Made by a program: the position numbers and the translations under genes
Assembly (NCBI GenBank): GCA_012295275.1
Contig: CM022669.1
Coordinates: 3,191,494 to 3,255,493 of the forward strand
Reading direction: 5' to 3'
Source: Chrysomallon squamiferum
Lineage: Eukaryota > Mollusca > Gastropoda > Neomphalida > Peltospiridae
DNA: 64,000 nucleotides
Shown: positions 14,409 through 52,489 of the stretch, one piece after another
Numbering within the stretch: position 1 is the first letter of the stretch
How the letters are laid out: each line of letters opens with the position of its first letter
The notes under the pieces: generated by a model
What the model was told of the DNA's origin: nothing
The model's database searches: none
The model's input: the letters and a program-made list of their open reading frames with translations, nothing else

Positions 14409-17400
14409 TTAGTTCATATTTGGGCAGAGAATTGTGTTCAGTTCATTTATAACAGCCTTGCTATTTTCTCCACACAGAAATGTTTCGTGGTTTCCGTCAA
14501 AGTAAGTAATGTGCACCTTGCCTGTGCAGTGCGGCACCAGTCCATAGTCCAGTGAGAGGGGAGTGGAATTCCGAGGTTCACACTTCAGTCGCAGCAGATA
14601 GATATCTCCTGTAGCAAAATAAAATGAAACATTCTAAATGTAATTCTGGAACTGGAGTTTTTGTTCATCCCACACTAGATGTATTTATAGTCTTTGTTTT
14701 AAATTATATTATTTTATTATTATTAACAATTTTATTTTTATTTCATTTTTATATTAATTATTGTTTATTATTTTCATCATCATTACTATTTTTATGATTA
14801 TTATTATTATTAGTATAGTAGTAGTAGTATTTTTATTATTATTAAGATAATTACCCTCAAACTTGTCATTTACTTCATAGTCGTCAATGATCTTTCTGAT
14901 CTGCACAGTCTCAATTGCCTTCTTCTCGCGAGTCAGTCTGATAAACTCTTTAGCTGAGTTGTAAACTCCGTCCTTCGCCATCTTCAGATGATTCCTGTTC
15001 TGCTGTATCCGACTCTTAGCAGCCAGCCATTTTGTTTTCTGAGGACTTGGACTAAAAGCAGATTGGTTTAGCAAATTATCAACTAATTAATGAAAAAAAT
15101 AATACAGGCCCTGAAGCTGTATTTAGAAAAGTGTTGGTGTTTTTTAAATCATTACAGGCTATAAATGACTGGAAATGTGAAATGTTTGTAAGACCTATCA
15201 ATAATGTTTGTTGTTCTTTTACTTGTCTAAGTAATAATGTACCATGATAAAATCTTTATTTTTTTATTTATTAGTTATTGTTATTGTTAATAATTTTATT
15301 ATTATTATTATTATAGTTTTTTATAAATCAGACCTGTTATGTATATAATAACATTCACAGTATTTAAAGTGTATTGAAAGTTCAGTATTATATTGTATGT
15401 GATAACAATCACACCTGACAAGAACATTGCCCATACAGATGTCAACAGCCAGAGCTGCCCTAGCAGACAGGTTAGGAATTTGTTCCAAGGCTTCTTGCAC
15501 CATCTCCCTGTGTGGGATTGGTCCAAACAGTTCCATGTACCACATTATAGAACCCACCTCCAGCAAATCTGCCACCTGAAACAAGAGATTTTCAGTCCTC
15601 ATGGTTTAATGATAAAGTATGAATATTTATGTTTACAGATTTCAAGAGGAAGGATAAAATGCAAACTGGTTGAAATGTTGTCTAAATTAACATTTTATCA
15701 TGTTTAGACAGACCAACCTATTTGATTAACTGCCATTAGTCATATGTTTATTTGTCAGTTTATAACACAGGCCAAGATTTGGTGCACACTTAATACTCTG
15801 CCTGTTACCTGGATAAAAATGGTATTATCCCACATTGTTATATATTGTAGTGGACCAATAATAAATAAATGAAAGAAAGACTTATAATTTTATTTCATCT
15901 AGATAACACAGCACACATGTGTAGGTTTGCATTTTAATTTAGAGCACTATAATTTGGTTAATGCTCATGAACATTAAAATTTCAAGTCTGACGTGCTGGG
16001 AATCACTGTCTGAATTATCACACCACCATCACAAACGTCAACAGCAGTGGACATGTCTGAAGTGCAAAACATGTTTACACTTATTGTCTCCTGATCACCT
16101 AAGCACGTTTCAGCAGATAGCCAACATCATCTAAGAACTGAAGAGGTGTCTTGACTCTCTGCTGTAGCTGATGTTTGAATCTAACTAGTCTGTTTTCCAT
16201 CTCTCTGTACACACATTGTGGGATGGAGGAGCGGATCAGTCCGCAAGTGGTGTTCCTGATTTGATCACCAATGGTATCCCAGTGCATCTTCCATTTCAAG
16301 TCTGTCAAACAACAGTCTTCCGTTGTAGAGGTGACTTGTCTAAGAGGGGGACTTGATGGCAATACCCTGACTGCAAACAGCAATAAATACTCCACTTTCC
16401 GAAGTCCAGCCATGGTGCAAGTATTCCATGATTTGACATTCCACAGTAATATATATATATATATATATATATATGCAAATGTCTCAAAAGCTACTATTTG
16501 AGTACACTCACTATAATCTGGTAACAGTACTTCACAATTGGAATTCTGTTAAAAAATTATTTTTTTAATATCTCACTGCTGTATCAAAACATGTCTCCTT
16601 CAAAGTCCTTCTCCTGCTTAAGAAGAATGTCTCCTTATAATTGAGTAACCATGAAAACGTGCTGCCCACCAGAGTTGTGATTACAACAGTTAGAAGTGAA
16701 ACCCAGTCAACACTAGCTGATCATTCCCCACACAGGTGTGTCCAGCTTACTTACTGCTTGACTGCTTTCCAAATTGTATGACTATTGACCATATGACTAA
16801 TGGGCATATGAGTAATGGGTGGATACCATCTACTTCATTATTATTAAAGGTTATGCAAAGATCAAATAAGGCTGTTTATATTATAAAAATCAATAACCTG
16901 AATCCAGTTTTATAAGAAATAAGAAATGCATTTGGAATATATGTTGATATTAATAAAATCTGTCATTTAACTGTATGTAATGCATACAAACACATTAATA
17001 TAACATTGCATATATAACTTCATTATCAGTAAGCTAGAATAACTCACCATGTGATCTGGTGTTCCTTCTGGTATGTGTATCTGTCTAATTCTCTTTGTCT
17101 GTCCATGTGCCCACTCTGGTGATCCATCCAGCATTATTAGGTACTCAACCTAAACATACAACTTAGATCATCTGTATTGATCTTACTGAACTAATGAATG
17201 AATATTTGGTGGATGACAGATGGATCAAGGAAAGTTCAAATTTACCTACATTAAATTTCTGTAAATTCCATTCTTTTTAAATATATATCAGAAACTTTAT
17301 ATTTTAATTTTTTCTCAACTTACAGTTTTGTTAGCATCCTGTAGTTGTCTGGCTATTTCAAAAGCAATCATTCCTCCAAATGAGTAACCGAGAATCCGAT

Positions 17401-20400
17401 ATGGTCCTTGAGGATTCTCTTCTTCTATGCATTTTCTGTAGAAACTAAACAAACCAATAGAGATTTCAATTAACCAAGATCAATGGTCATTAGAAACATT
17501 CCCTTCTCTACTGAAAATTCATGAATTCATAACTTGGCTACAATCGAGAAGCATGGATTTTCTTTCTTTGGTCATTCTGATTATTAAAATTCCAGTAGTT
17601 TAATTCTTATAAATTGTAATCTGTTAAAGAGGAAACCTGACTATGTAGATGACTGTCAATCAGTTACAAGAGAATGTTCAACTTTGTTAAACCAGCAGAG
17701 CACACACCAATACCTTAAATTAAATCAGCAATGGCCTGAAATGGGAAAGTCTTTTCTAGTATTTTAGTGATTTTAAAATCTGTATTAATTGTGATGGTGA
17801 TGTTCCCACCTGGCAATGTCTTTGACTGATGTCCGAGGAGTACTTGATGACATCTGAACCCCAATACACGGCACCTTCAACTTCATTCCAACAGGTTGTA
17901 ACAAAGTAAGAGTGCCTATAAAATATATAATTAATTAAATAAATATGTATGTGTGTATGTATGTATAAAAATATTTTGTATGACCTGTCACATCAAGATA
18001 ACTCTAAAAATTGAACAATACTGAAACATATACAAACTAGAAATGCTCTAATAATTTTTGGATAAAATATTTTACCACCTATTAAATAATATATATATAA
18101 AATATAAGTTTTTATTAAGAAACTAATCACCTGTAACGGGGTGAACCATGTAGAGGGGAACACCAGTAGAAATGCTGTTCAATCTGACTAGAGTTGGGTC
18201 ACTTCTTGATGGCGTCATGAATATTTTCAGGGCTGGAGTCATTGGGGTACGGGGGGCTCCCACAAACACCAGATCCAGCTGTTTTTGTATAGAGAACGTG
18301 TGTCTGCAAATTTCAACAATTAATTCTTTAAAATAAATATCAGAAAAAGAAGAGTTTATCACAGTGGTGGTAGACTGCTGTGTCATTTGACTAGTTGCTT
18401 TAGCACAGTATCTAAAGTAAGTGTTTGGAGTATGAAGAAATATATATTTAACAAAACACTATAGTTTTATTTTACTGGCAATTAATCTTTGCTAGAAATA
18501 AAGGATAATTTAGGTAACTAGCCTGAAAGGATGCAGTGAGGCTGACATTTTTATTTATTTATTTATTTCTGCAATATCATTTTCCAATAATAATAAAAGT
18601 GAATAAATTCATTACAAAGTCCTTCAAGGATGTTTAACATTTCAATTACATCACAAAACAAATTCTTGGTCAGTCAACAAATATTAACAGGAAAGACTGA
18701 CTGCTATAATACACATAATAGACAAATGCATACAAAGTATAAAGAATACGGTTTTATAAATACAAATATTTCAGTACATTCAGCTGCAAGTTTGGTTCTG
18801 TTAGTATTTATCACTTATGATGTCAGTGAAAAATAATTTAAATCAGGACTTACGGTGTTGTGAAGGAATCAACCAGTCCCTGATTTCTCTTTCTTTGTTG
18901 TTTTCTTTTTACTTTGTCAACAGCAGGCTTTGTTAAAATATTTCTGTTTTAAAAGAAAATGAAACAACCAGAACATTTGCTGTCTTTGTTAAAGTCAATG
19001 GGAAGTATATTTTGTTGTGAGAAATTAAATCTAACTGAATACTTTATCCTCATCAATTAAATGTGAAAAGTAAGGTGTATTTTTCTTTTCTTTTCTATTG
19101 AAAATCTGAAATGTGAATTATAATAGCTCATCTTCTTCCAGAGGCAGGAACCTGTTTTATTTTTGTATTTTGTTTTTCTTGCCAAATTTATTTCCTTTAT
19201 TTTTAAAATACATGCCATCCACATATTGTTTAAGTTGATAAAATCCAAGAGTTTAAATAAGTTTTCAGTCAGGAAAAAACTCACATTTGTGATACATATT
19301 CTGCATTAACATCTGGTTTGTGAGGTAGAACACTCTGGTATCCAGGATCTCTCTCTATTGTAGCTATTGGTTTTCTGGTTAAATATTTTTAAATGATTGA
19401 TAACACAGAGAAAACAATATTTTTAACAGATTATCATTGTTAAAAATAAATAAATAAAAGACTGAGTTTACCTTATTTGTAAGATCAGTCACAGATGTTA
19501 GACATTAAAACAAACCTAACTGAATAACCATTTTCTATTTATATTTGTTAAAACCTTTTGTTAGGTTTAGTTACAAAAAAATAGAGAACTTTTTTAATTA
19601 GATTATAAAATGTGTTTAATAAAAATATTAACAAAATAAAATTTATACATCTTTCATTAGTGCTTGCATATCAGTTAATATTTAGGCACAAAACAATTTT
19701 TACAAAATTATGAAGAAAAACTTACACACATTCCAGTGGTGTTTTTTCACCTTTGTCAGGTATGGTAAAGGAGAGTACAGGTGTAGATAAAGCTGTCTGT
19801 GTGTTCACCTTCATCATCTTTTCCAGGTGAGGTACATCTATCAAAGCTGGATACAGTTCAGCAGTTTTGCATGGTGGACTGCTACTGGAAATGAGTGTTT
19901 CGTCAAATGGTGCAGACTGCAGTACAGAAGATTCCTTGAATACACAAAAAATATTTTAAAACGAAGTGTGAAATATTTCAATGCCAAACTAAGCATTTAA
20001 ATGACATCACAATGACCATACAGATAATGAAAAATAAAGCAAATGCAGCCACAAGCGGGGATATATTTATAAGCAGTTAGTAATTTTTTACATTCATTTT
20101 GTCATAAACAGAAACACATGCACCATGGCCTTTTATGAAATAGTCATGGGACATTGCGTGGAATTGAAAAGTAATTCATAGTCAGTCATTATCCCAAAAG
20201 ACTATTATTATTATCTACATTTGTACAGACAGCCAAGTCCACAACACTGCAGATCACTTTGTACCAAAAAAATCACTAGACCTCTGTGGACAAGACGCAG
20301 ATGTAAACTGCTAGATCAAACCTGGTGTTGCGGTAAAAAGCTTTCCTGGATTTTCTGTAATGCAGCAACGTCTGACTGGGACAACTCGGTGAAAACATCA

Positions 20401-21372
20401 CCCACGTTTATTCCTGGCTTGTCTAGCACATGAAGCAGACTCTGCAGCTGTATTGTTTGTGACGATGTCCACGTCTCTGTCAAACTGTAGGTAAATCCTT
20501 TCATCTCAGGGTAGCCTTCTTCAAACAGCTAGACAAACATACAATACATAGAAAGTAATGAGTAAAAAGAATGAATGAAATAAGTATTTCTCAATAGTCA
20601 GTATCATAAAAAAAGAAAGAATTGTAACTAGTATATTGTGGAATAACAGCAATAATATATATTTTTTTATATAGCCTAAAAAATATGTATTTGCTAATTC
20701 TAATTTATGAATGAATACTTCGGAACCTTAATTTTAATGTCACGAAAGAAAAAACAGCTTTAAAAGTTGTCATAGAATCTATGGTGTCAGACAAAAGGTA
20801 ATTGTCATATGTTCAGTACAGTATAATTAAAAATACCATCTGGTACATTTAACACATTTAAAACAGATATACTTTCAGATCGGTAGTATTGGATAATTAA
20901 GAATAAAATCTATTGTATTTATCATAGAAATAAGTGTTCAGATTTCAGAATTTCAGATAAGCAGTCTTCAACGTGTGTTATAATCTAGTCAAATGAATGG
21001 AGAGAAGTGGATTACATTTACCCGTTTGATGGCTTCTGACACTGCATTGTAAACTAACAATTTAACATCATCAACAGATTTCTTCATCAGGGTCACAAAA
21101 GCCTGTGCTGGGTCAACAGCAACAACAGATATGTTTCTGAGGAAATGATTCATTCCAAACTTGTCTGACATGCTGGGAGTCACTGTCTGAATTATCACAC
21201 CACCATCACAAACAACGTCAACAGCAGTGGACATGTCTGAAATACAAACATGTAGATGAGATCAAACATACAAAACACTTGTAGCCTACAATGCAAAAAC
21301 ACATACAGACAGTATATCAGACACAAATACATACAAACACAAACACACACACACACACAAACACACACACAA

Positions 21373-21405
<33 letters not shown>

Positions 21406-22928
21406 CAACCACACAAACACACACACACCCACACTGTAAAGATCACAGATAACACAAGACTACACACTGTACACACTACACACCACACTGAACACAAAAC
21501 ACACATATACACAACACAGATTATGCACTAAATGCAGTGAGAATTAACATTTATTCTGATTTAATGATCTCTGGTTTGTTACGTTCTGAAAACAGCAAAC
21601 GTTCTCTGACCTGCTCCACTGTTTTTGATACAGATGTCACATCCTTGACCTATAGTTAGTCGGCGGATCTTTGCAACAATGTTTTTAGCTGATAAATTTC
21701 TAACATTTGGAAACATTGGCATCCAAATCTGCTCGGATTTCAGAATCCCATGTTGCAGTGTAGACCCACACCCAAGCTGATCAGCCAGTGCTATTATGTA
21801 AATAGCCACAGTATCTGAAAAATGTATATAACATTCATTACATATACATTTAATACTTTCTATCAGTAACATACTTCTGATTGTTTTACTGAGAAAATAA
21901 ATTACCATGTTCTATTGATTAATTTCAAGGAATCTTGCATTCATCAACTGATTTTTCTACAACAGGTAAACAAAATCTTTGATAACCTAGTGGATTAATC
22001 TTTCTCATTAAAAATTTAAATTATTTATTTTCTTTATATAGTTTTAACATGAATTTTGTTTAAAAAATCAGATTAACAAAAGAGTAATGAATAGGAATTA
22101 CTGTCTAACCTAGAGGTGGGAGAACAACAACAGAGGAAGTTTCTGAAGCCTTTGCAGCATCCAACAAAATGTAAGTAGCCAAAACGAATGGAACCATCAT
22201 CTGCAAGTCAGGAACATGACAAGGAATATCTAGTGGAATGTCACAGCAGGATAAACCACCATCTGTAACGATAAAAATATGTTATTTATATGATATAACA
22301 GTTAAAACAGATACTGATATACATCTGTTTACATCATAGTTGACAAGAAAACTTTAGAAAGATAAAGAGAACTTGGACTGATCACATACTCATATCTGGA
22401 AAAGATGATCATTCATAAAACTGACTGGTGCTGAGAATTTGAGTAAGACATCAGTGGAAAGGATAACACCTGAAACCAGCTAGAGAAAATATCACTGAGA
22501 CATTAGAAGACAATTACTGATGGAGTAAGGATGACAAGCATAAACAAATAAAATGTATAATACTAAAGCAGTTAACTTGATATTTTTTTCTAAAATTGAA
22601 AGAAATCAAATTTCTCACTGACCAATTTCAATTTTTTTCCCCCTTGTCTAATACTTTTAAATTTAAAATGTAATTCTCCACTTACCAGATTCAATAATTA
22701 TTCCCATTAACTGTTTGGATGGGTCTGACTGTTTTGATCCTAAACAGAGCATGACTCGGTTCTGTCTGTGTGACTGAGAATTCAGTGTACTGGTGACTAT
22801 TACAGAGATCAGCAGATCGTCTGTGTGTGTGTCAGATGTCATGTCAGTCTGACATGAGGACTGGTTTAAACTGACTGGTATGTCCGATTTGAACTGCAGA
22901 ACAAGACATCCAGCCTTTGCAGAGTCCT

Positions 22929-22973
<45 letters not shown>

Positions 22974-25900
22974 TTACTTGTACTATTTGTAGTAGAGGCA
23001 TTAGTAGATGCAAAAACACAAGTATTATTATTATTAATAATAAAAATAATAACAAATGACAGCTCAAATAGTAATAGCATTTACTAGTGATAACAATGAA
23101 GAATAAAATACATATCAATAAAATAAAAGCAACAATAACTATTATAATACAATTATAATAATTGTAACTATTATAACAAAAACAGAAGAATGTACAAGTC
23201 TATCAATGATAATAACAGTAGGATTAATACTGATACACATACCTGCAACAGCATCCACCATGGTAAGAATGCTGGCTCCCTGTTTGACCACTTCCAGGTG
23301 TTTTACTGGATTCACCATCACTTTCACCAATGGCCACTTAATATGTTGTCCAGCAAACTCAAGGACAGAGTTGAGAAATTCCAGCCAGCTGTCCTCCCAC
23401 AAAATCTCGGTGGTCTCAATTTCAGACAGAGCACTACTGAAATAGTGAAATTTTGTGATGAAATAATAATTCCAAATAATTACTGTATCTGCATAATCAT
23501 ACTGACTGAATATATTAATGACTTCACTTATTGAGGCCAATGGGACCATTCATCTGAACTTTCATAGAAACATACAAACATACCTCGAGTTGTGAGTGCT
23601 CCATTTTATGAGTTTTCCGAGTTATGAGCAGCTGCCAGGTCAATTTTATGCTTTTGAGTTGCGAGCCAAAACCCGAGGTTGTTGATACACCGCCGCGTTT
23701 TAACAAACAACATAACAAAAAATTTTTGCCAAACATGAGTGAGGTGTGCATATAGTCAATATGGCTAAGCAGTACGAGAGTAATACTCTTACTGTACCAT
23801 ACTGAAGCAGAAGGAGACGATAAAGGCTTTAACTCCAGCCAAAAGCATTAAAATAATTTCTAAGCTGCGGACCTCTGTCCATTAAAAGATGGAGAAACCC
23901 TAACCCTGTACACTTTACATAATTAATTTATTTCTTTACATTCTCTTTTGTTTTGTTTTTTTTATACAATATTCGTCATTTATACATACATTTTTCTTAT
24001 TTAAATATGTTACAAAAAATTGGAGTGGTTTTTGGGGGCTGGGACGGATTAATGGCATTTCAGTTTCATTTGGGAAAACTGATTTGATAAAATGAGTAAA
24101 CTGAGTTACAAGCTTGGTCACGGAACGAATTCAACTCACTAGTCAAGGTACCACAGTATTTTAGAAACCTGTGTGAACAGAAAACAGCCTAACAGCATAT
24201 TCACACTAACTGATCATTATGTGATTTTATCTGCTTTTTACCGAGTAGCACTATTTTAAATATTAATATTTATCATGCAAAATACCTGTTCTGCATGTTC
24301 TCATTAACATCCATGTCATAGCCAGGAATTGTGGGTAAAAACATGTCTGCTGATGGCAGAAGATATTTTCCTCTGAGAAGAATTCCATCTGTTTAAATAA
24401 ATAAGTAAGTATGTATGTATGTATGTATGTATGTATGTATGTACATACATAAATAAATAAATAAATAAATAAATAAATGTTGAAAGTATTAATCATCAGT
24501 TGTTGTACTGACATACAATTTATGAAACATTGTACATTAAATATCATTATTAGTTTTAATAAAAAAAGAATGAAAGACAGATCTTCTGTTATACAACTAC
24601 GAAATTTTAAACACCAAATACAGTTAACTATTAATAATTAATAATGTCCATATTTTACATTCTGTAACAACTGTTATCCAGTTGTTTTCATAGCTTTATG
24701 AATTTCTGAATCAGAAGTGTTAATAATGGATTTTCTTATAAGCCTTAACTATTTTGTTTTGTATATAAGAAGGATTATCAACTTTCTTATTATTTATAAT
24801 AAACAATTTGTGTTATTTATCTCCAAAATCAAACTATTACCATCAGGAGAAACACAGAAGCATTTCTGACCAACAAGTACTTCAATGAGTGCATCTTCCA
24901 CTGTTGCTGGGGACAGTTTGTCAAAGTTCACGTGTAGATCACTCAAAACAATGGAGTCTAAGGCTTCTTCCTTTCCACTCTGTAACAAGTTTTGTGAAAT
25001 CTGTTCTAGGTGGTTTACACATAAAGGAAATACTTCTAAAGCATTTATTCAAGCATGGATTCAAAATTTCATTCATGGTATGTTTTTCTAATAATGCACA
25101 TCACATGAGATGTACTTTATATATACATATATATAAAGAGAAAACCATCAGAATATTTAATGGGACACATCTTCATTTCACTGGGATTTTGCTAGTACAT
25201 CTCATGTGATCTGGATTAGTAGAAAAACACTTTGATTATTCTGAGATGAGAGGTTCCAAACTCATTCAGCCCCTTTCTGGATTCAAACCCAACATTACTG
25301 TTATGTTTCTACAGTGTGACCCATACATTCACTTCACAGCATTTTAAATCCACATCTTTATTAGAATACCTACACTGTAAAAAATTATTTAAAAAAACAA
25401 CAATTACATTAGAAGATGGCAGTGAAAGTGTTACAAATTAAGTTAAGAAATCATTTTGAAAATTAATGACAATTTTAAGAGTGAAATATCAAGGTCTGGG
25501 AATAAACAATAGAGAATATTTGATTTAGAAAAAAGCTGAAATCTGTAAATGTGATGGAAATACAAATGTATGATGTTTTAAAAAGTTTACAAACCAGTTT
25601 ATAACTTATTGCACTGCAAATGTGATAGAGGACAAGAACCAGTGGATCCCAAAGTTTAAAATTATCAATTTCAGGAATTGTGTACAAGTTGTCAATATCA
25701 TCTTTCTCTGAAAAGAAAAAAACACATTTATTAAAACTGATTTTTCTCTGCCTTTTCTTTTAGAACCATTGTTATTTCAACAATATGAAAAATCAGACAG
25801 CATTTACTTCTGTCATTCAAAATTATTTTCACTCACCTTTTTCTATTAAAATATCACCAAAAAAAAAAATAACAAAAACAATCAAAAAACAATAATAATC

Positions 25901-28900: not shown

Positions 28901-31057
28901 CTATCAGTATGATTATTAACTTGTTCCAGGTATTCACCAATGGTCAAAGCCACCTGTAGACATTCAGCTAGAGAGAGACAACCTGTCAGGTAAGCAGATG
29001 CAATTTCAGACAAACCACAGCCGATGGTGCCTGATATCTCACAGTGTGATGCAACAAGAACAGCCCTCAGTGCTGAAATACAGCAACATAGACAGACACA
29101 AGTCGTATTCAGATTTGTGACAATGCTGTACAATTAAAATTCATATGAGCATGTCAAGCTCGCTGGTTAATACACAGTGAAAAAGAGTGTAGATGGTTGT
29201 TTAATATGTTTTAAAATAAATGTTTAAATAATAACAGTCTAAGAATAGTATCAAGAAGAAGAAAAAAGGAGGAAGGGGAAAAGAAGGCAAATAACTCACT
29301 AAATAATTAGTTAATTAATTAACTAACTAAATACAAAAAATGTCCATTATACTTTCAAAATGTCCTATCCATTAAATCAAATAATAAAATAAAGCCAAAA
29401 AAAAGTATTGAAAAGAGATGTTTCAATATGTACAAAACTTTAAGAAATTTTCAAACTGTTTTAACTTATCTCTTGAACCATGCTGAGCAGGTTCAGAAAA
29501 AGGCTACTCCAATTCTGAATTTTAAACTACAGCTGCATTTCCTGTAATTTACACTGCTTTATCTCAATCCAAATGATAAAATGTAAATAAATATTAGAGA
29601 CCTAAATCATCGCAGTGACAAGGTGGTGTAAATATTAACAGGTAAATTGAATGCCTCACCTATGAGACAAGCAGTGCGAGTGACTAAACCAAGTCTGGAT
29701 AAAGGAGGTTGCTCCTTGGTCATATTCTCCATTAGAGACCAATCTCCAGTAAGCTGCTGAACAATCTGTAAATAAAATTTTATAATGGACATGTTCTGAT
29801 GATGTTAAAATAAATTAACACAAATATACATGCATTCATGTCAAACAAATGAACAAACGAACGAACGAATGTACACACACACATTGTTGCATTTATCTTG
29901 GCATACTGACATTCATATATATGCACAAATAATAATATACACACACATGAATTTGTATAAACACACACACACACACAACGCATATGTTCATGAAAACATA
30001 CATAGACTATTTTTTTAACTAAATCTAATACCTTATCAGAATTTGAGACAGACTGTACAAATGCAGAAAGAGACATGATTTCTTGTTTAATACATCCAGT
30101 GGACCATGCAATATCATTCAAAATTAACCACAGTTTTGGCGGTGCTTCTTGAACATGGAGGAATTTAGAGGTAACTGAAAGAGTAATGAGTAAAAGTATC
30201 AAACAGATGACTCAATATTACATAAACTAGACTGGCTTTTATCTGGCTTTCAGAAAAAAAAAATTCCAAACAAAATAGCTTTTTAGAAGTGTATTAATCC
30301 GTTATTTCATTCTTTACTTTTCTTTATACTATAAATATATATTAAGCTCCAATAAAAACAGTTTTCTTTTCATGTATTGTAGTATACGTTGTGTATTTTG
30401 CATGTATGTTTTATTTTTCTATTTACTGGATGTATGGCCAATTTTTTGATGTTTGAATGTTTGGATACACTCATAAACTTGTTCATTCTTTCTTGTATAA
30501 TGGTCTATGTGTGTATATTATTGAAACTGATTATATTTTAATGTAAAAATATTTAATCTTTCCAGCTATTGAACTAAATGATATGTACTAACCTGTACTA
30601 TCTGTAAAAATACTGACAACACCTCTGATTGGCTGTTTTCTGTCACATGACAACAAAGACTTGGTAAAGAAATGAAGTAAATTCTCATCATTTCCATGAC
30701 TACTGATGAAATTACTGATTGTGTTGAAATTATCTTCATTTCTGGCTGTCACAGGAATTATGATTTGGCTTTGAAGGGATTTTTCTGAATGTAAATGGTT
30801 GAATAATAAAATAAAGTTATATAAATACAGTCATTCAGAAATTAAGATATATTAAAAAGAAAAAGATATATTTCATATAATAGTAATAATGATAATGATA
30901 ATGTAATAATAATAATAATAATAATAATAACAATAATAATATTAAAAGCATCATAAATATTTATTTAACCTAATCTTTGCAAAAAATAAAGTAAACAGGC
31001 CAATAAGAAAATGTCATGAAAAAATTGTCCAGTATTTTCTTTGTCAACAACACTGAC

Positions 31058-31114
<57 letters not shown>

Positions 31115-34100
31115 TATATGTACAGCAGTAATAGTAGTAACAACAATTACAATAAAAATGTAAACTAACAATTATAATAATAACTGTAATAAATTAATAA
31201 TAGTATTAATAATAGTAATAAATAAAAAATTAATTTATAAATGATGCTGTTACCAGGTTTCTTTATCTTGTACGGCTGTAAAAGTGCATGTCCATTTACC
31301 CCACCAAATCCGTAACAGTTGACACCCACCCATCCATCTGGAAGAGCAGTGGGTTGGTCAACTACACAGACTTGTCCATTGACAATGGGCGTGATCTTTG
31401 GGTTAGGGGTTTTGAAATGAAGACTGGCAGGAAGTATCCCATGATGCATGCTCATAATGCATTTGATCAGACCAGCCAATCCTGAAATGATCCCCAGAAA
31501 ATCAAAATATGATTTCATGATATACTTTTCTTCAGTCATCATCTACAAAATCTTAACTGTATTTAATTAATGTCTAATGACACCCAGCATAATGAAATAA
31601 GTACATGTAAGTTATTATTTTTAAGCTACTTAACAGAGATGAAAATGCATCTCATTATAGAACGAATGTTATCTTTTATAATTGTATTAATAGCCTGAGC
31701 ATCCTCTGGTGGAGAGAAGCTCAGATAGATAATGGGATGGATATCGCTGGTTCTCTGCCATATATAGGTCTGTTTGCACTGATTCTGGCTAGTATAGTCA
31801 TTAACAATCAGTTCTACAGTCCTTTAGATCAGTCATTTTCAAATTTGCTGGTACCATACCAGTTAGTCATATATATAGCCTACATATTACAAGAAGAAAT
31901 CAAGACCCCTATCATAAAATCCCCAACTCAGAAATCTAACACGTTTGAATTGACATAAATAGTAATGTAATTGTCAGCTGATTAACATGTGAGAACTTTT
32001 CAGTAAATGTCAGATCATATAAGATGGCATCATATAAAGATTATTTTTTAATTTGCTAATCATGGATAAATGAAAGAATATTTAACAGCATCGTGATAAT
32101 AATGATACTAATGGTACAATACATTTATTGTTTAAAGTAAAAGATATCATATTCCCATTGACAGCAAAGCATGTACTCACAAGTCATGCAGTCTTGAAAC
32201 CATAGATGACAAAATAGCTTAATGGGCTAATGAAGATTAATGGGCTAATGAAGATTAATTCAGCAATCCAAACATTCTTGCTGCTATAGTCAAAACAGAA
32301 GACTGTACCATCTGATTCTTTAAATGATTCATACAAAATACTGTAGATACATGATTCCCCTTAAATGATACTGAAACTTGTAAAACAGGATTGTACCAAA
32401 AGTGGACATTTCCCCGATTTCAATGAATTTGTTATCAAAGGTGTTCATATCTAAGGAAGAACTAAATTAATCTTTTTATCAGTTACCTGCAGCAGCCTCA
32501 CAGTGTCCCATGTTGCTCTTCACAGACCCTACAAGAAGTTGTTGTTGACGATCCTGACACAATACATCAGCCACTGCCTGGGTTTCAGTTACATCTCCAA
32601 TCTGTCAGAAACAACATACAAATGCATCTTTAAAATTGCTATAGCATATAATGTTGAATTTTAACTGCAAATTTTCCCAACAGTGATAAAAGATTCATTT
32701 TTGTGAATCTTTGGTAACATAACAGGAACTAAATAACGAATTAATTTCCATAATTTTACATGTTTAAAACTTTCGTACTCAGCATTAGAGATATAATTTT
32801 GTAATAATACTGTGAGAAAGTAAACTGCTACCATTACATGGACTGTTTTTATACGTTACCAGCTTGGGACATTATTTCGACAGAAAAGCACCTACTACGT
32901 CCACCTGCTCCAGACAATAAAAATGGTGGAATAAAAATAAACAATAATCAGTGGTTTGAAAACTGCATTATCGCCTTCACTGAAGATGAAGCAAAATATA
33001 TCTGTCCAAAGCTGATAAAGATTTGATTAATTCTGAAGAAAATTAAACAAAATATTAAGAAAACCAAAATGAATAAAATAAACTGTTATTTAAAACCTCC
33101 AGTATAATAATAACTCCTAAAATGTAAGGTCTTTTCTACCTGTGTTCCAGATCCATGCATCTCTATATAAGCTAGATCTTTAGTCTTAATTCCAGTTCTT
33201 GTGTAAATTGTTTGGAGCAAAAACTTCAGAGAATGAAGGCCTGGGTGAGTAATACCTGCAAGTTGAAAGAAAACAAGGCTAACATTGCTTACTTTTTAAC
33301 ATCAAATGAAGGGTTAAGAATCAAAGTAGTGTGTAGCCTCAAACAATTACAAAATGAGTTTGGATCAAACAAGAGTGGAGATTAATAATATCAGACAATG
33401 ACAGAACTGTCTGAACTAATCAGATTTGACTGCACTCATGAAAAACATCTTAAATATTCCTGTTACGGTTTTTTGTTTGTTGATTTGTGTTTGTGTTTTT
33501 GTTGTCGTTTCTTTTTCTTTTTTTTAAATACTTAAATAATTTTAACAGTATTCAGTCATTTTAAAAATGGTTTGTTAAACTATGTTTTTTATATCTCCTT
33601 AGTAAAACTAATTTTTTTTAATCATTAAATCATTTTTTTTTAAATGAGTTTCTTAGAACACCAAGACACATTTTAATATTAATGGTTATTAGATGTGGAA
33701 GTTTTTATAACAATAAACTGGTTAAATGAAACCTGATGACAGTCTAATACATCAGTAACACATTACCTTCCTCTTTATAACCATCACAGTTAATGGCTAT
33801 GTCTATCAGTGATGCATAAATTCTTCTACAGGTAGACTCAGAGCTGGAAAAAATATAAATATTTTATAATCCTACAGCACACAGTAATAGTAATATCCTA
33901 TATAACTAAATCATTACATATGAAGAATTATTAGGTGTCATCATTTCATTTTTGCATTATATGGCTTATAAATTTAAATTAAATTACACATACACATACA
34001 AAGGACTTTAAGGGATATATTGTTAATTTGCACTGTAAGTTTTGTTCCTTTCATTTCTAATCATTTAAAATGAAAAATCACAACTGGGACCGATATAAAA

Positions 34101-37100
34101 TTAGTCTGTTAACCAGTGTGTACAGTTATAAAATAGTGTGTTGTTTAGAATGTGGTAAGGGTCATGCTGTAGTTACTGAAAAAGCTGATTAATTTCATGT
34201 CAAAAGGATGATGACCTAAAAGTTTGAGGCTTGTATTACAACATATCTCTGTACCATGTGTCACAGCACCAAGTATCATTGCAACATGTTTCAGTGTACC
34301 ATGTGTCACAGCACCAAGTATCATTGCAACATGTTTCAGTGTACCATGTGTCACAGCACCAAGTATCATTGCAACATGTTTCAGTGTACCATGTGTCACT
34401 GGACCGAGTATCATTGCAACATGTTTCAGTGTACCATGTGTCACTGGACCGAGTATCATTGCAACATGTTTCAGTGTACCATGTGTCACTGGACCGAGTA
34501 TCATTGCAACATGTTTCAGTGTACCATGTGTCACTGGACCGAGTATCATTGCAACATGTTTCAGTGTACCATGTGTCACTGGACCAAGTATCATTGGAAC
34601 ATGTTTCAGTGTACCATGTGTCACTGGACCAAGTATCATTGGAACATGTTTCAGTGTACCTTGTGTCACTGGACCAAGTATCATTGGAACATGTTTCAGT
34701 GTACCTTGTGTCACTGGACCAAGTATCATTGCAACATGTTTCAGTGTACCTTGTGTCACTGGACCACGTATCATTGCAACATGTTTCAACATGATACCTT
34801 GTTTCACTGGATCATGCATTTAAAACTTACTACAAATCTAAAATTAAGTACATTTATTTTATAATTAACCTTTTTCACTTTGTGAATGTTTGTTCTGAGG
34901 GTGAAGAAAACAATAAAACCTCACCTTGACAAAAACATGGCTGCCACCCCATCTGATCTAACATAACCATTGGCACTAACATCATAGACATGGCTGTCTC
35001 CTGTTGGACTGAGCATGTTGAGCCGATGAAATCGCAGCGAGACATTAGGACTTATAACAAGATTGATGCCTAAAATCAAATAATGAAAATTACTTGACTA
35101 CAGAACTGCAAAAATAAAATCTTACAATTAGTCTTAGTATACATTATGGCAACAGTAGTCATTGGGTTTTTTAGTTATATTATAATATAGTAAATATAAG
35201 ACGGCAGTTGATGGATGTACATACTGACTGAGAAATTTCCATTCATTATATATTTTCTGATTAATTCTTACATATGTGGCCTAATATATCGAAAGTCACA
35301 TACATAAATTTTACTGGACTTGTTATCTATTTGTTTATTTATTTATCTCCCTCTTTGCTTAATTATTAATAATTTATTTATTTATTTGTTTATTTATTTA
35401 TTTCCCTATTAAATAGTTAGGTTTCAGAATGATCATTTAGGTTTCTTAGTTTTCAAACTGATTATAACTGATACCAGCAACAATGGCTTGTTTGCATCGT
35501 CCCATTACCAGATCACCAACGGCCACATCGAGAGCAGCAAATGAAGAGGTGCATGCTGCATCGACACTGACAACAGGCCCATCACATCCAAACATCTGAC
35601 TTAGCTGACTGATCAGCTCAGACTTCACATTCACTGAGACAACATAAACATTGAGTAAATATTCACAATGTTATATAACACAAACTTGGCAATCACATAT
35701 AAAATTCAAACTGAAAATATTACAGGTGTGTAATTTTGTCATGTTGTATTTATTATAAAGTAAGCAGTAACACATGCAGGTTGAAATGTGGTCTAATGCC
35801 AGTCTATTTATTTTAGGGGAATGAAAAAAATGTCTACTTTTAATAACCAGTGCCTTTATCTCTATACCAACACCCTTTCTTTCTTCTTTTTCATTCGTTT
35901 TTTTTTAAATTAAAAGAAAAAAGATTTGTTTCAGAAATTAAGGAGGTCACTTTCATTTTCTATCAAGTATTTTATTAAAAAAAATAATGATAATAAATAA
36001 ATAAATAAAAACAAATTTACCTATTCAGTATATTATCTGTTACATTTATAAATGACTTATTGTGCATTAGCAATACAAAGTGACTGTCAGTTACAAAAAT
36101 ATTTAAATTTCTAAGACTATCATTTGCTATACGTATACAAACAAGAGTAATAGATCAGTGTTCAAGTGTACTTACACCATCCAGAATCAGCAATGAGAGA
36201 CGTGGTGACTTCATCTAAATCAGAAAACGTACAAGCAAGGTACAGTCCTGTCTTACTAGACTCAATGTCGTTCAAGGTCAAGCCGGTGTCTACAATGCAT
36301 TCATGAACCACTTCAAGAAGCTGTCGGCACATCACACTTAAATGTTTAGCCTGTAGTTGTAAAAGAAAACATTTTTAAACCATTTTTATGAAATTTATTT
36401 TTACATCTTGTATATGGAATGAGGAAAATTTCTGTTAATTAGTGTCGAATAAAAATTCTTGAAATTTTTTAATATAAAAAAGAAAATAAGTTGTTGAAAA
36501 ATAAAATAATGAATTACAAAAATATTTCAAAATGTTAGTTTAAGATAGATAATTATTTTTATTTTTCAAAAAGTCTGAATTATAATTGCAGTAACAAACA
36601 ACTTTCTACAACAAATTTTGTATTCATATTCAATTATGAAGAGTAAATTTTCCAACTGTTTTACCTCCATTTCAGGAATTTTGAAGTATTTGGCATCAAA
36701 CATGTTTATATCTGGAATGTGGCCAGTTCTTGGGGGTAACCCACACAAGCCTGCAGGCCACACATTGTCATCCAACATGTCGACTCCATTTATCAAGTTT
36801 TCCCAGAATTCCTGGAAAACAAGGCAGGTCCTGATTACAATTAAACATTTGGAGTTTTCTCTTGACTATTAGTTTCATACATTTCATAGAAAACTGCATT
36901 ATGTTCAGCTGTATGTTTTTCTTATTGGAGAATGTATATATAATGTAGTATTTATATTTTGGTAAATAATAGTTTGAATTTATATTTTGCTTGTAAACAT
37001 TCCTGGACCTGACTACTTTTAGTTTTTATTATTTTTTTTTTGATTGATTTCCTTTTATATGTACATATGTAACAAGTTTGATAAAACAAAAAACCATTAA

Positions 37101-37508
37101 CAATAATTAACATTAAAATTTAGATTCAGTTACTGTACTTAATTCAAACTAATTTGGAGTATTCTTTTTTTCTTTTTAATAAATGCCTTGATTCTGAATA
37201 TTATTAGAATTTTAAACAAACCATCCTTTCCTCTGCATGGATTTGTTTTGCATTTTGGAGGTGGGTTTTTGCAACAAGTTCATCTGTTAGTTTTATTGTT
37301 AATTTTGTTAACGTCTATCAAATTGGGCTTCTATGCTATACTAAAGCTTTGGGCCTTGCTGTGTCTACATCCAGAGCTGACGACAATATAATATTTAATT
37401 TAAATCATAAATGATATTTTTTTAATAGTAATAACTTACATTCACATTTGATGATTTGGGGAATCGACAAGCAATTCCAGAAATATATGCTTTCACTTGA
37501 CCAGTCAT
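14409..37508 (-). CDS. Fatty-acid-synthase-derived protein: intact KS and TE, degenerate middle, no KR (36 exons)
   Basis: Thirty-six exons on the minus strand join to about 1,920-1,940 residues, against about 2,500 for animal FAS. The order follows FAS: ketosynthase (residues about 1-410), acyltransferase-like (410-900), dehydratase-like, enoylreductase-like, a carrier-like segment, a linker, then thioesterase. KS residues Cys158, His291, Lys324 and His329 align with FAS Cys161, His293, Lys326 and His331. The TE keeps GYSFGG, an LDGS Asp and a C-terminal GNHETF His. The AT, DH, ER and ACP active-site motifs are lost, and KR is not found. The start codon at 37508 opens directly into the KS fold (QVKAYISGIACRFPKSS) in good phase. 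All junctions agree in phase except 23243/22926. The function is unknown: KS and TE chemistry may survive, or the protein may be a non-catalytic FAS relative. It could also be counted with animal FAS-like polyketide synthases, but no normal chain-loading machinery is present. Confidence 0.85.
15986..16074 (-). pseudogene. Intronic partial copy of an ER exon of the same gene
   Basis: This intronic stretch repeats the start of the ER exon at 21162-21253, including its acceptor, with a 3-bp deletion and a few substitutions. The shared core runs from the acceptor CTTCAG/ACATGTCCACTG through GATGGTGGTGTGATAATT. It lies in the same orientation as the gene, within the intron between 15575 and 17048, about 5 kb downstream of its source. 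It is too short to be a full exon and has no matching donor, so it is a relic. Confidence 0.8.
16099..16413 (-). other. Unidentified 104-codon open frame in an FAS-like intron
   Basis: The frame begins MAGLRKVEYLLLFAVRV and ends VGYLLKRA-stop. It has normal amino-acid variety, several Cys residues and a basic/Gln-rich end (RFKHQLQQRVK). It sits directly next to the relic ER-exon copy and next to a TA array (16449-16474). I do not recognise a family. It may be a fragment of a mobile element or a duplicated exon from elsewhere that arrived together with the exon copy. Confidence 0.3.
18854..20528 (-). other. Carrier-protein-like segment lacking Ser, plus basic linker
   Basis: Exons in transcript order: 20528-20322, 19934-19726, 19374-19285 and 18943-18854. 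Where FAS has KR then ACP, the first exon reads LLHVLDKPGI followed by DVFTELSQSDVAALQKIQES. This can be aligned with an ACP helix pattern of the type LCHILGI...LADLGxDSLMGVEV. If so, the phosphopantetheine-bearing Ser position is Asp (SQSD, about residues 1438-1441). No Rossmann-fold KR sequence occurs between ER and this segment. The following exons form a Ser/Pro- and Lys/Arg-rich linker (KVKRKQQRKRNQG) into the thioesterase. The ACP alignment is weak and tentative. Confidence 0.45.
21022..22926 (-). other. Degenerate enoylreductase (ER) domain exons
   Basis: Exons in transcript order: 22926-22686, 22262-22110, 21814-21611 and 21236-21022. ER signatures remain: PFVLATYILLD (FAS PVVYxTAYYxL), ALADQLGC after the cofactor loop (FAS ALSLGC), CDICIKNSGADM (FAS VDLVLNSLAEE) and FGMNHFLRNISV (FAS LGMAIFLKNVTF). 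The NADPH loop, GSGGVGQAA in FAS, reads VVVLPPLDTVA, with no glycines. NADPH binding is therefore unlikely. The first exon has a phase conflict with its upstream neighbour. Confidence 0.75.
21331..21432. repeat. Imperfect (AC)n array in an FAS-like intron
   Basis: AC dinucleotides interrupted by AAAC and CC units fill about 100 bp just upstream (in transcript sense) of the ER exon ending at 21236. Both strands give open frames of repeated His/Thr or Cys/Val, which I reject as genes. Confidence 0.9.
23575..24157. mobile_element. Tigger/pogo-like non-autonomous element in an FAS-like intron
   Basis: The left end reads TACCTCGAGTTGTGAG. The right end, read on the minus strand, gives TACCTTGACTAGTGAG after ACTGTGG. 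Further in, both ends carry the characteristic 'GAGTTATGAG / GAGTTACAAG' and 'GGAACGAATTCAACTC' text. Ends of the CAGTGGTACCTTGG type with such inner sequence are typical of Tigger/pogo relatives in the mariner superfamily. The roughly 580-bp interior shows no intact transposase. It sits wholly within the intron between exons 24286-24388 and 23243-23436. Confidence 0.5.
25080..25231. mobile_element. Short foldback MITE with about 37-bp terminal inverted repeats
   Basis: The sequence ATCACATGAGATGTACT at 25100-25116 is found perfectly inverted at 25194-25210. The match continues outward, imperfectly, to TGTTTTTCTA at 25081 and its complement near 25230. The total span is about 150 bp with a short AT-rich centre containing a TATATA tract. 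No coding capacity. It lies in the intron between 24979 and 25595. Confidence 0.6.
26987..30784 (-). other. Degenerate malonyl/acetyl-transferase (AT) domain exons
   Basis: Exons in transcript order: 30784-30593, 30174-30032, 29765-29660, 29072-28890, 28448-28299, 27865-27754 and 27534-26987. The KS-AT linker and AT fold are recognisable: PPKLWLIL at the usual PLWFI strand, IASAYLTGCLSLAE after the nucleophile elbow, and LKKIIKSPKKLSPQFLSAS near the end. The nucleophile motif GHSLGE reads GCGLSE, so Ser is replaced by Gly577. The catalytic His of AFHS aligns with Tyr682. The last exon (548 bp) carries a Ser/Arg/Lys-rich insertion of over 100 residues in place of the final AT strands, before ELHLLGFDVNV re-enters the FAS AT-DH linker. 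Confidence 0.8.
31058..31112. repeat. (AAT)n microsatellite
   Basis: An uninterrupted AAT array within the FAS-like intron between 30784 and 31254. Similar AAT arrays lie at about 22930-22972 and 30904-30930. Confidence 0.9.
31254..37508 (-). other. Ketosynthase domain exons of the FAS-like gene (active-site residues present)
   Basis: Coding exons in transcript order: 37508-37440, 36811-36665, 36350-36176, 35633-35475, 35069-34925, 33843-33767, 33255-33140, 32601-32487 and 31481-31254. The nucleophile is in VDAACTSSF (Cys158; codon at 35551-35553). The first His is in EMHGSGTQ followed by IGD (His291), and the Lys/His pair is in GSVKSNMGHCEAAAG (Lys324, His329). The fold closes with NCYGFGGVNGHALL. 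EFWENLINGVDMLDD near the start and NMLSPTGDS are also typical of FAS-type KS. The residue spacing matches mammalian FAS to within two or three positions, so the domain looks condensation-competent. Confidence 0.9.
34246..34791. repeat. 45-bp tandem minisatellite in a KS intron
   Basis: About 12 copies of a 45-bp unit (beginning TCAGTGTACCATGTGTCAC) run head to tail in the intron between 33843 and 34925. Copies fall into ordered variants: AGCACCAAG first, then TGGACCGAG, then TGGACCAAG with CATTGGAAC, and later CCTTGTGTC. This points to stepwise amplification. Because 45 is divisible by three, several frames on both strands stay open for up to 224 codons; these are by-products of the repeat. 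Confidence 0.95.
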
Positions 37509-41251: not shown

Positions 41252-42450
41252 ATAATATAATATAATAAGCACACATTCAGTACATACACCAATACACCAG
41301 TATTTGTAAATCATCTATATGATGTTAAATATTAATTTATGTTTATTATTAATAACTTGCCTGTTTTATAATTAATGTTTTAAGTATTGGAGTATATATA
41401 TAAAAAAAAAATATATAAAAAATAAAAATATAAAAATTAATAGTAATAAAGTAAAATATAAAATATTAAAAATATTTTGTCCAACATTGGTAGTGATCCA
41501 CATTTTGTTATAGTATTACTGTTTTTTATTTTCATTACCGAAAATTGGCAAAACTGAATAAAACCATATTAAGATCTGAACTGATATATATATATATATT
41601 GAAAATATATAATTTATAGTCTGATAAATTTATGGCTGATATTAAGAGTTCTGGGCAAATTAGAACAAATGGTTTAAAAGGCAGAGAAAGAGTGTAAAAA
41701 GAGATTTCTAGTGTACCAAAATGGTTTGCAGCTTAAACCAACTTATTACTATCTATCTGTCTGGATGTATGTATGTGTGTGTGCATGTGTGTATGTATAT
41801 ATAGATCATGAAAAAAAAAAAAAATAAACAATATTACATTTCATTTTACAAAATATCCAAGAACTATTTATCTTCACATTTTCTGATGAAAAAATAAATG
41901 ATGCCAATTATTATTATTATTTTTTTTTAAAGGTATTTTTTAATGAAAATATATTATTTGAATATAAAATAAATGTGATAGATGTCACTTAAATTATGCA
42001 ATAAATGTAAGCTGAATTGATATTTCCTATTCATACATAGATTTACAAGTTTCTGCATATATTTAGCATAGATCAGTGTGGTCTGCCTGTTGTCTGTGTG
42101 TGTGTGTGTGCATGCATGCAGAATATTAACAGCTATGGTTAATTAATAATCCCTGTTCAACACACACATGCACACATATGTACATTTATAATGTGATATG
42201 ATTATAATTTTTATTTTTTTATTTTAGATCAGCAAAATAAGAAAAAAGATGCCAGATATTAAGATGCACATCTGCAGGTCATCCATATTTCTTGTAACTT
42301 TAATTATGCTTTGTTAACTTCATATCAAGAATGATGTACAGTTATCTTTTTTTTCAGATTCAAATGGGTTAACTTAAACCAATGAATTTAGCCTTTACTT
42401 CTCTTGCTGAAGGATGCAGAAATGTGAAAATGGAATGACTTAATTTTTTT
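38200..42450. other. Intergenic region between the FAS-like and zinc-finger genes
   Basis: Both flanking genes point away from this region. It contains ATT and ATTT arrays (about 38265-38310 and 40316-40389), TA arrays (about 41201-41247), a T run near 38620-38642, and a LINE remnant near 39415-39660. At about 38685-38735 a phrase resembling a hAT terminus (AAAAGGTTGATAACCACTGG) occurs. No intact gene is seen. Acceptor-like sites at 42358 (TTTTTTCAG) and 42453 (TTTTTTAG) probably belong to 5' UTR exons of the zinc-finger gene. Confidence 0.6.
39415..39660 (+). mobile_element. Remnant of a LINE reverse-transcriptase C-terminus
   Basis: On the plus strand, broken frames spell WQWIEHMLRQ followed by an Asn-Pro, then a Lys/Arg-rich run and TWRRKLQ, and later a Val-Asn-Gly-Leu-Phe-Pro phrase. 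The pattern W-x-W-I-G-H-x-L-R ... G-N-P-x-G-K-R-K-R-G-R-P ... T-W-R-R is the familiar C-terminal tail of many non-LTR retrotransposon polyproteins. Stops and frame changes show it is dead, and upstream RT motifs were not found. Confidence 0.5.
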
Positions 42451-42481
42451 AGATCAGAACAATTCCTCTGTGTTACTTGCA

Positions 42482-52424: not shown

Positions 52425-52489
<65 letters not shown>

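What the first reader, a model, noticed from the sequence alone, without database searches (positions are those of the whole stretch)
14409..37508. FAS-derived megasynthase reduced to an intact ketosynthase and thioesterase
The 36-exon gene keeps the full FAS scaffold order and clean splicing. Only the KS (Cys158/His291/Lys324/His329) and TE (GYSFGG Ser, LDGS Asp, GNHETF His) keep their catalytic residues. AT, DH, ER and the carrier-like segment have lost theirs, and KR is missing. That architecture is not a normal FAS, nor the usual animal FAS-like polyketide synthase. The KS might condense or decarboxylate acyl groups delivered in trans by another FAS, with TE release, or the protein may act as a regulatory partner of FAS.
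Basis: partly seen in the sequence, partly recalled or inferred. Interest (0 to 1): 0.9.

Follow-up and report, generated by a model that had tools for sequence, protein, structure and literature searches.

The report
Molluscan fatty-acid-synthase relative keeping KS, TE
This snail-like gene is a distant cousin of the fatty-acid-making megaenzyme that has kept only its chain-joining and chain-releasing catalytic sites; the same stripped-down protein occurs in snails and bivalves, very probably belongs to a published group of unknown chemistry, and as assembled here carries a frame break that may be a sequencing error.

Summary
A minus-strand gene (37508 to 14409; 34 or 35 exons in my models) encodes an FAS-like protein of about 1950 aa. 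KS (C158/H291/K324/H329) and TE (S/D/H) residues are intact, AT Ser/His, DH His and the ER motif are lost, and KR and carrier are absent. The 'carrier-like segment' is not conserved and may be intronic.

Two corrections. It is not unique: in the window plus nine relatives from gastropods and bivalves (Gigantopelta, 57% over full length) the KS set is intact in 9 of 10, the TE triad in 10 of 10, and AT Ser, DH His and ER motif are lost in 10 of 10. KS phylogeny, HMM scores and domain content match the 'mo-clade 4' AFPKs of Lin et al. 2024 ('unknown biochemistry'); their sequences could not be compared. And splicing is not fully clean: indels in ER-like exons 22 and 24, one breaking the frame, suggest an assembly error or very recent lesion; KS and TE show no excess of changes.

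Most likely a KS-TE enzyme acting on acyl groups delivered in trans; the mechanism is inferred.

The parts
37440..37508 (-). exon 1, start codon 37508, KS
36665..36811 (-). exon 2, KS
36176..36350 (-). exon 3, KS
35475..35633 (-). exon 4, KS; catalytic Cys158 codon 35553-35551 (DAACTSS)
34925..35069 (-). exon 5, KS
33767..33843 (-). exon 6, KS
33140..33255 (-). exon 7, KS; His291 codon 33157-33155 (EMHGSGT)
32487..32601 (-). exon 8, KS; Lys324 and His329 (KSNMGH)
31254..31481 (-). exon 9, KS end (GFGG) and start of linker domain
30593..30784 (-). exon 10, KS-AT linker domain
30032..30174 (-). exon 11, AT-like
29660..29765 (-). exon 12, AT-like (donor refined with relatives; 29620 in the 34-exon model)
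28890..29072 (-). exon 13, AT-like; GHSxGE replaced by GCGLSE, Ser lost (start refined; 29065 in the 34-exon model)
28299..28448 (-). exon 14, AT-like
27754..27865 (-). exon 15, AT-like; AT His lost (LYSKLM)
26987..27534 (-). exon 16, AT-like with a long insertion
25971..26108 (-). exon 17, AT/DH-like
25595..25707 (-). exon 18, DH-like; HxxxGxxxxP lost
24841..24979 (-). exon 19, DH-like (both ends refined with relatives; 25000-24805 in the 34-exon model)
24286..24388 (-). exon 20, DH-like
23243..23436 (-). exon 21, DH-like; strong donor 23243; the 34-exon model uses 23196
22686..22926 (-). exon 22, ER-like; frame shifts near its start relative to relatives
22110..22262 (-). exon 23, ER-like
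21611..21814 (-). exon 24, ER-like; NADPH motif lost; two compensating indels around a 16-residue out-of-frame stretch
21022..21236 (-). exon 25, end of ER-like
20322..20528 (-). exon 26, post-ER segment where FAS has KR
19726..19934 (-). exon 27, linker
19285..19374 (-). exon 28, linker, found by match to the Gigantopelta relative; absent from the 34-exon model
18131..18411 (-). exon 29, linker with VFVGAPRTPMTP motif, then TE start; may begin at 18303, leaving out the 'carrier-like' stretch
17810..17915 (-). exon 30, TE
17324..17444 (-). exon 31, TE; nucleophile Ser in GYSFGG, codon 17383-17381 (acceptor 17444 refined with relatives; 17435 in the 34-exon model)
17048..17149 (-). exon 32, TE; Asp in LDGS, codon 17128-17126
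15415..15575 (-). exon 33, TE
14855..15051 (-). exon 34, TE, with an insertion relative to FAS (SPSPQKTKWLAAK)
14409..14608 (-). exon 35, TE; His in GNHETF, codon 14489-14487; stop codon ends at 14409

Best explanation
The gene is a molluscan orthologue of a TE-bearing animal FAS-like family (very probably mo-clade 4 AFPK). The family branches beside animal FAS, shares its losses between gastropods and bivalves (so AT, DH, ER, KR and carrier function were probably lost before those classes split), and keeps KS and TE as its only complete catalytic sets on a partly preserved FAS scaffold. Shown here: the architecture, retention of KS and TE catalytic residues across the sampled family, loss of the others, and stronger conservation of KS and TE than of the dead domains. 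Inferred: the KS takes acyl and malonyl groups from a carrier or CoA made elsewhere (for example from an intact FAS, as Gigantopelta has), performs one or a few decarboxylative condensations without reduction, and the C-terminal TE releases a beta-keto or poly-beta-keto acid, or simply trims acyl chains.
For: Relatives of similar length and order in Gigantopelta, Haliotis (two species), Potamilus, Sinanodonta, Mizuhopecten, Pecten, Patella and Mya. Window plus these 9: KS set intact 9 of 10, TE triad 10 of 10, AT Ser lost 10 of 10, AT His lost 8 of 10, DH His motif lost 10 of 10, ER motif lost 10 of 10; no phosphopantetheine motif in the aligned ACP region in 10 of 10. Pfam on the window and 7 of the 9 relatives: KS and TE above cut-off in 8 of 8; KR, PP-binding, DH and MT in 0 of 8; the intact Gigantopelta FAS, run as control, has AT, KR, PP-binding, DH and pseudo-KR above cut-off. 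Identity relative to KS falls from 0.92 (5 FASs) to 0.54 (6 members) for AT and rises from 0.59 to 0.78 for TE. Sites invariant in the 5 FASs and ungapped in the 6 members are kept in all 6: KS 80 of 186, TE 22 of 38, AT 8 of 105, DH 8 of 75, ER 6 of 142. KS clade 100/100 beside animal FAS. In a predicted model of the C-terminal half the TE matches human FASN TE (TM by target 0.81-0.84), the ER-like part matches FASN ER weakly (0.46-0.47), and the stretch where KR and ACP would lie is below pLDDT 50. Gigantopelta also has a 2555-aa FAS (P0155).
Against: No biochemistry, transcript or product was seen. A KS without its own carrier or AT has no demonstrated substrate. In Mya P0008 the KS has lost Cys, both His and Lys while the TE triad stays, and a second Mya protein, P0009, lacks the KS Cys region, so KS catalysis is dispensable in one lineage. 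The residue aligned with the DH Asp is kept in 8 of 10, and the two pectinids keep the AT His, so the losses are not total. The window copy as assembled has a frame break in exon 22. The structure used only 4 sequences (mean pLDDT 57).
Confidence: 0.55

Rival explanations
1. Regulatory or scaffolding pseudo-FAS: the protein dimerises with, or docks on, the true FAS through its KS and ER-like surfaces and modulates it; catalytic residues are kept for fold or as a decoy.
For: Dead domains are still moderately conserved within the family (DH-like 36.5%, ER-like 30.3% mean pairwise identity). Mya has lost the KS set yet keeps the protein. An intact FAS coexists in Gigantopelta.
Against: A complete KS set in 9 of 10 and TE triad in 10 of 10, with TE more conserved relative to KS than in FAS, is more than a scaffold would need.
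Confidence: 0.2
2. Mainly an acyl-thioesterase: TE hydrolyses acyl-CoA or acyl-ACP, and KS serves only as an acyl-binding or transacylating module.
For: TE triad 10 of 10 while the KS set is lost in Mya; of the five domains compared, TE alone is more conserved relative to KS than in FAS.
Against: KS is the most conserved domain in absolute terms (mean 50.2%), and the condensing His pair and Lys are kept in 9 of 10.
Confidence: 0.15
3. In this species the gene is a recent pseudogene; the function exists only in relatives.
For: Uncompensated indel in exon 22 (stop at aa 1145) and two compensating ones in exon 24; unusual changes at KS sites invariant in 7 relatives (T156A, S159T, T293S); in the ER-like part 14 window-derived against 6 Gigantopelta-derived residues, and in the DH-like part 13 against 7, with the out-of-frame stretch left out.
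Against: The indels lie in two exons, 22 and 24; a TTA run abuts exon 22 and a CA array lies at 21321-21434, places where assemblies err. No other stop in 1117 + 828 codons. At 285 sites invariant in 7 others (out-of-frame stretch left out) 15 changed only in the window, 9 only in Gigantopelta, 31 in both; KS 6 v 6, TE 1 v 1; by majority residue over all parts 77 v 75.
Confidence: 0.1

Closest known systems
mo-clade 4 AFPKs, Lin et al. 2024 (PMC10764717; outline, sections 8, 9, 11, 12 and passages read)
   Same: Molluscan, FAS-like KS outside canonical FAS, TE present, InterPro sees KS-AT-TE only, present across mollusc classes
   Different: The parts I read do not say that AT and carrier are lost at residue level or that only KS and TE keep catalytic sets; I could not compare with their sequences (no supplement look-ups allowed)
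Animal type I FAS (Gigantopelta P0155; human FASN structures 8vf7, 3hhd, 7mhd)
   Same: Domain order; KS 41% and TE 33% identity to Gigantopelta FAS; best solved-structure matches
   Different: No KR, no ACP, no pseudo-KR match; AT, DH and ER catalytic motifs lost
Sacoglossan AFPKs EcPKS1/EcPKS2 (mo-clade 1; PDB 9cq1, 9cti, 9ctk)
   Same: Animal FAS-like KS
   Different: EcPKS1/2 have AT, KR, ACP and no TE (PMC7280274 passages); the window KS scores 269-274 bits to them, 307 to the putative PKS 7zma, 329-346 to FAS
Type II and trans-AT ketosynthases; type III PKS (recalled, no call)
   Same: KS working with groups supplied in trans, or with CoA directly
   Different: No relation tested; here the KS is embedded in an FAS scaffold with a fused TE

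Membership tests
Functional animal FAS | AT Ser/His, DH, ER, KR and ACP active sites | tested here: not met
   Searches (AT Ser/His, DH His, ER motif lost; DH Asp-aligned residue kept; no ACP motif), Pfam
AFPK (Lin et al. 2024) | KS scores higher with an FAS HMM than a PKS HMM, FAS score in the 400-600 band | tested here: met
   with my own HMMs (9 FAS, 14 PKS, none of the PKS from animals): window 418 v 318; 9 of 10 family KS 404-441; Mya 280 v 259. Not the authors' HMMs, so the band is only indicative
AFPK (Lin et al. 2024) | KS outside the canonical FAS clade but closer to FAS than to PKS | tested here: met
   100/100 clade, sister to 9 FASs plus an Anopheles FAS-like protein, rooted on 15 PKS rows; no animal PKS and no mo-clade 1-3 sequence in the set
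mo-clade 4 | TE present, unlike mo-clades 1-3 | tested here: met
   TE above cut-off in 8 of 8 scanned
mo-clade 4 | no domain other than KS, AT and TE recognised | tested here: met
   window: only KS (with extension) and TE pass Pfam cut-offs, AT is below it. Relatives: AT above cut-off in 3 of 7 (P0002, P0004, P0121); Haliotis P0002 has a PLAT domain in addition
mo-clade 4 | groups with the published mo-clade 4 sequences | not testable with these tools
   supplementary alignments could not be opened (0 look-ups allowed)
mo-clade 1 (EcPKS1/2) | active AT, KR, ACP, no TE | tested here: not met
Pseudogene | relaxed constraint and disabling mutations | tested here: inconclusive
   frame break in exon 22 and more window-derived residues in DH- and ER-like parts, but no excess in KS or TE; dN/dS not computed, no relative's coding DNA was at hand

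The most novel reading that the evidence does not exclude
An animal type I ketosynthase that has become carrier-independent: it loads acyl-CoA and malonyl-CoA directly on a KS that no longer has an AT or ACP, and releases the product through its fused TE, a type-III-PKS-like chemistry reached by stripping down an FAS-like megasynthase and kept in molluscs since before gastropods and bivalves split.
Probability: 0.15. Interest if true: 0.85.

Novelty: new member of a known kind. Interest (0 to 1): 0.5.

Why it matters
A mollusc-wide enzyme family of unknown chemistry is narrowed to two testable activities, KS and TE, without its own carrier or loading domain. If the KS condenses, it shows that an FAS-like megasynthase can be reduced to a two-site enzyme fed in trans; if it does not, it is a very large FAS-derived pseudoenzyme. 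Either answer can be tested with Haliotis, Pecten or Patella relatives, whose database proteins run full length, and bears on unexplained molluscan lipids and defence chemistry.

Tried and rejected
Treated as an ordinary FAS: rejected by loss of AT, KR and ACP. Treated as a mo-clade 1 type AFPK: rejected by TE presence and AT/KR/ACP loss. Treated as a degenerate carrier in exon 29: not supported, not conserved in 9 relatives and possibly intronic. Treated as one damaged copy: the same losses recur in nine relatives. The 34-exon model was kept only as a bridge for searches and alignments (rest on it); relatives support other ends for exons 12, 13, 19, 21 and 31 and one more exon, 28. The protein searches scored only the candidates sharing most words and listed the best 120, and a region search with the post-KS part of Haliotis P0002 listed only P0002 itself, P0003, P0009 and one jgi protein, P0234; so the family list is what shared words could reach, not a census, and no cephalopod or chiton member was seen. 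The window's own genome could not be searched (tool busy). dN/dS was not possible: only proteins of relatives were returned. Rfam and tRNA scans of the window were empty. On re-reading, the FAS-invariant counts were found to include columns gapped in the family; one search recounts without them and is the one cited.

Full report
What is there. The minus strand from 37508 to 14409 holds a multi-exon gene. I chose exon cores by eye from stop-to-stop frames, joined them by splice-site scores and obtained 34 exons, all GT-AG, 1958 codons without an internal stop. Relatives later showed better ends for several exons and one further exon, 19374-19285, giving 35.

Domain state. Pfam finds KS (two halves and extension, residues 9-465) and TE (1658-1753) above cut-off; AT (21.2 bits, cut-off 32.7) and zinc-ADH (16.3, cut-off 31.8) only below it; KR, DH, MT and PP-binding not at all at E up to 1.

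It is a family. A search of about 5.8 billion proteins (7982 candidates scored, best 120 listed) returned proteins of the same order and 1844-2051 aa from Gigantopelta aegis (57% identity over 100%), two Haliotis species, Patella, Potamilus, Mizuhopecten, Pecten and two from Mya; a profile search added Sinanodonta. The window therefore very probably comes from a gastropod, nearest among the hits to Gigantopelta; the species was not determined. In the window plus nine relatives (P0001-P0008 and P0121; Mya P0009, truncated in KS, left out) the KS set is intact in 9 of 10, the TE triad in 10 of 10; AT Ser is lost in 10 of 10, AT His in 8 of 10 (both pectinids keep FHS), the DH His motif in 10 of 10 and the ER nucleotide motif in 10 of 10; the residue aligned with the DH Asp is kept in 8 of 10. 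The aligned ACP region has no phosphopantetheine motif in 10 of 10. Mya P0008 is the exception in KS: Cys, both His and Lys are gone while its TE triad is kept. Pfam on seven of the nine relatives agrees, and the intact Gigantopelta FAS P0155, run as a control, shows AT, KR, PP-binding, DH and pseudo-KR above cut-off, MT below it. Which residues are catalytic in each domain is from general knowledge of these enzymes.

Selection. Among six members with an intact KS, mean pairwise identity is KS 54.2, TE 42.1, DH-like 37.4, ER-like 31.6, AT-like 29.2; among five FASs it is KS 65.6, AT 60.5, DH 52.7, ER 48.9, TE 38.8. Relative to KS, AT falls from 0.92 to 0.54, ER from 0.75 to 0.58 and DH from 0.80 to 0.69, while TE rises from 0.59 to 0.78. 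Of sites invariant in the five FASs and ungapped in the six members, all six keep 80 of 186 in KS and 22 of 38 in TE, but 8 of 105 in AT, 8 of 75 in DH and 6 of 142 in ER. This is what retained KS and TE function with loss of the rest predicts. It is a protein-level comparison, not dN/dS.

Placement. In a KS tree of 35 sequences the ten family members form a 100/100 clade, sister to nine animal FASs plus an Anopheles FAS-like protein (97/90), rooted on 15 PKS rows that are bacterial where named. The Mya branch is long. No animal PKS or mo-clade 1-3 sequence was in the tree. With HMMs built here, nine of ten family KSs score 404-441 on FAS and 309-356 on PKS; Mya scores 280 and 259. Against solved structures the window KS scores 329-346 bits to FAS, 307 to the putative PKS 7zma, 274 to EcPKS1 and 269 to EcPKS2.

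Known kind. Lin et al. 2024 (PMC10764717; outline, sections 8, 9, 11, 12 and passages) describe mo-clade 4 AFPKs: more FAS-like than PKS-like, TE present by contrast with mo-clades 1-3, only KS-AT-TE found by InterPro, nothing by antiSMASH, present in all surveyed mollusc classes, of 'as yet unknown biochemistry'. The family here meets the points that I could test. The published sequences could not be opened, so membership is very likely, not proved. In the held library only that paper contains 'mo-clade'. Of 24 papers with a word beginning AFPK, 20 were listed and most of the listed titles are unrelated. Among the listings I saw no paper on a function of mo-clade 4 or on its residue-level losses; besides Lin et al. 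I opened only passages of Torres et al. 2020 (PMC7280274) and of a 2026 paper (PMC12833800).

Structure. A prediction for the C-terminal 831 residues of the Gigantopelta protein, with three relatives in the alignment (mean pLDDT 57), gives mostly 50-90 in the ER-like and TE parts and leaves residues 271-512, where FAS has KR and ACP, almost wholly below 50, with a few short helices at the start and little after residue 329. Foldseek matches the TE to human FASN TE (TM by target 0.81-0.84) and the ER-like part to FASN ER (0.46-0.47); among the 50 rows listed no ACP or KR match to the middle stretch is named, though two FASN chains that include ACP appear through the ER region. With four sequences this is supportive only.

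The frame break. The donor at 23243 and the acceptor at 22926 are what relatives support, but they put exon 22 out of frame after a few codons, with a stop at aa 1145; the two parts on either side, 1117 and 828 codons, are otherwise open. In exon 24 the reading frame gives STLQHGILKSEQIWMP where another frame gives VYTATWDSEIRADLDA, close to Gigantopelta's VYTASWDSEIRADLDT. These indels lie within about 1.3 kb in the ER-like exons; a TTA run abuts exon 22 and a CA array lies at 21321-21434. Leaving out the out-of-frame stretch, 285 sites are invariant in seven other members; 15 changed only in the window, 9 only in Gigantopelta, 31 in both (KS 6 v 6, TE 1 v 1). By majority residue the window has 77 derived residues and Gigantopelta 75; in the DH-like (13 v 7) and ER-like (14 v 6) parts the window has more, in TE (7 v 12) and AT-like (12 v 16) fewer (with the stretch included, ER-like is 23 v 7). 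I read this as an assembly error or a very recent lesion rather than an old pseudogene. It cannot be settled without reads.

How it most likely works. Shown: two conserved catalytic sites on a reduced FAS scaffold. Inferred: substrates come in trans, since no AT or carrier remains; no reduction is possible, so any condensed product would be released as a beta-keto or poly-beta-keto acid by TE. The Mya case shows that KS catalysis can be lost while the TE triad is kept, which favours TE as the core function in at least one lineage. A regulatory role on FAS is not excluded.

Noticed in passing
window 16056-15986: A 93% identical copy of the first 74 bases of exon 25, with some sequence before it, lies in the intron between exons 32 and 33; a partial exon duplication.
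   Followed up: partly
window 34250-34788: Twelve copies of a 45-bp unit, 98% matches, in the intron after exon 5.
   Followed up: no
P0002 residues 483-591; also P0003 by its listed Pfam domains: In Haliotis a PLAT/LH2 domain is inserted between the KS linker and the AT-like part; this may mean lipid or membrane targeting there.
   Followed up: partly
window about 18290-18200 and relatives: A TP-rich motif (consensus VDLLFVGPPRTPMTP) shortly before TE, clear in 7 of 10 members and weak in the two unionids and Mya; function unknown, possibly a docking or phosphorylation site.
   Followed up: partly
window 42428-45193 (+): A 921-aa uninterrupted open frame with C2H2 zinc-finger matches.
   Followed up: no
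window 52383-53252 and 57257-57742 (+): Open frames with stretches ([39 protein letters not shown]) that resemble SCAPER from memory; no Pfam match at 1e-3.
   Followed up: no
P0008 and P0009 (Mya arenaria): Two Mya family proteins have lost the KS catalytic set or its region but keep the TE triad.
   Followed up: partly
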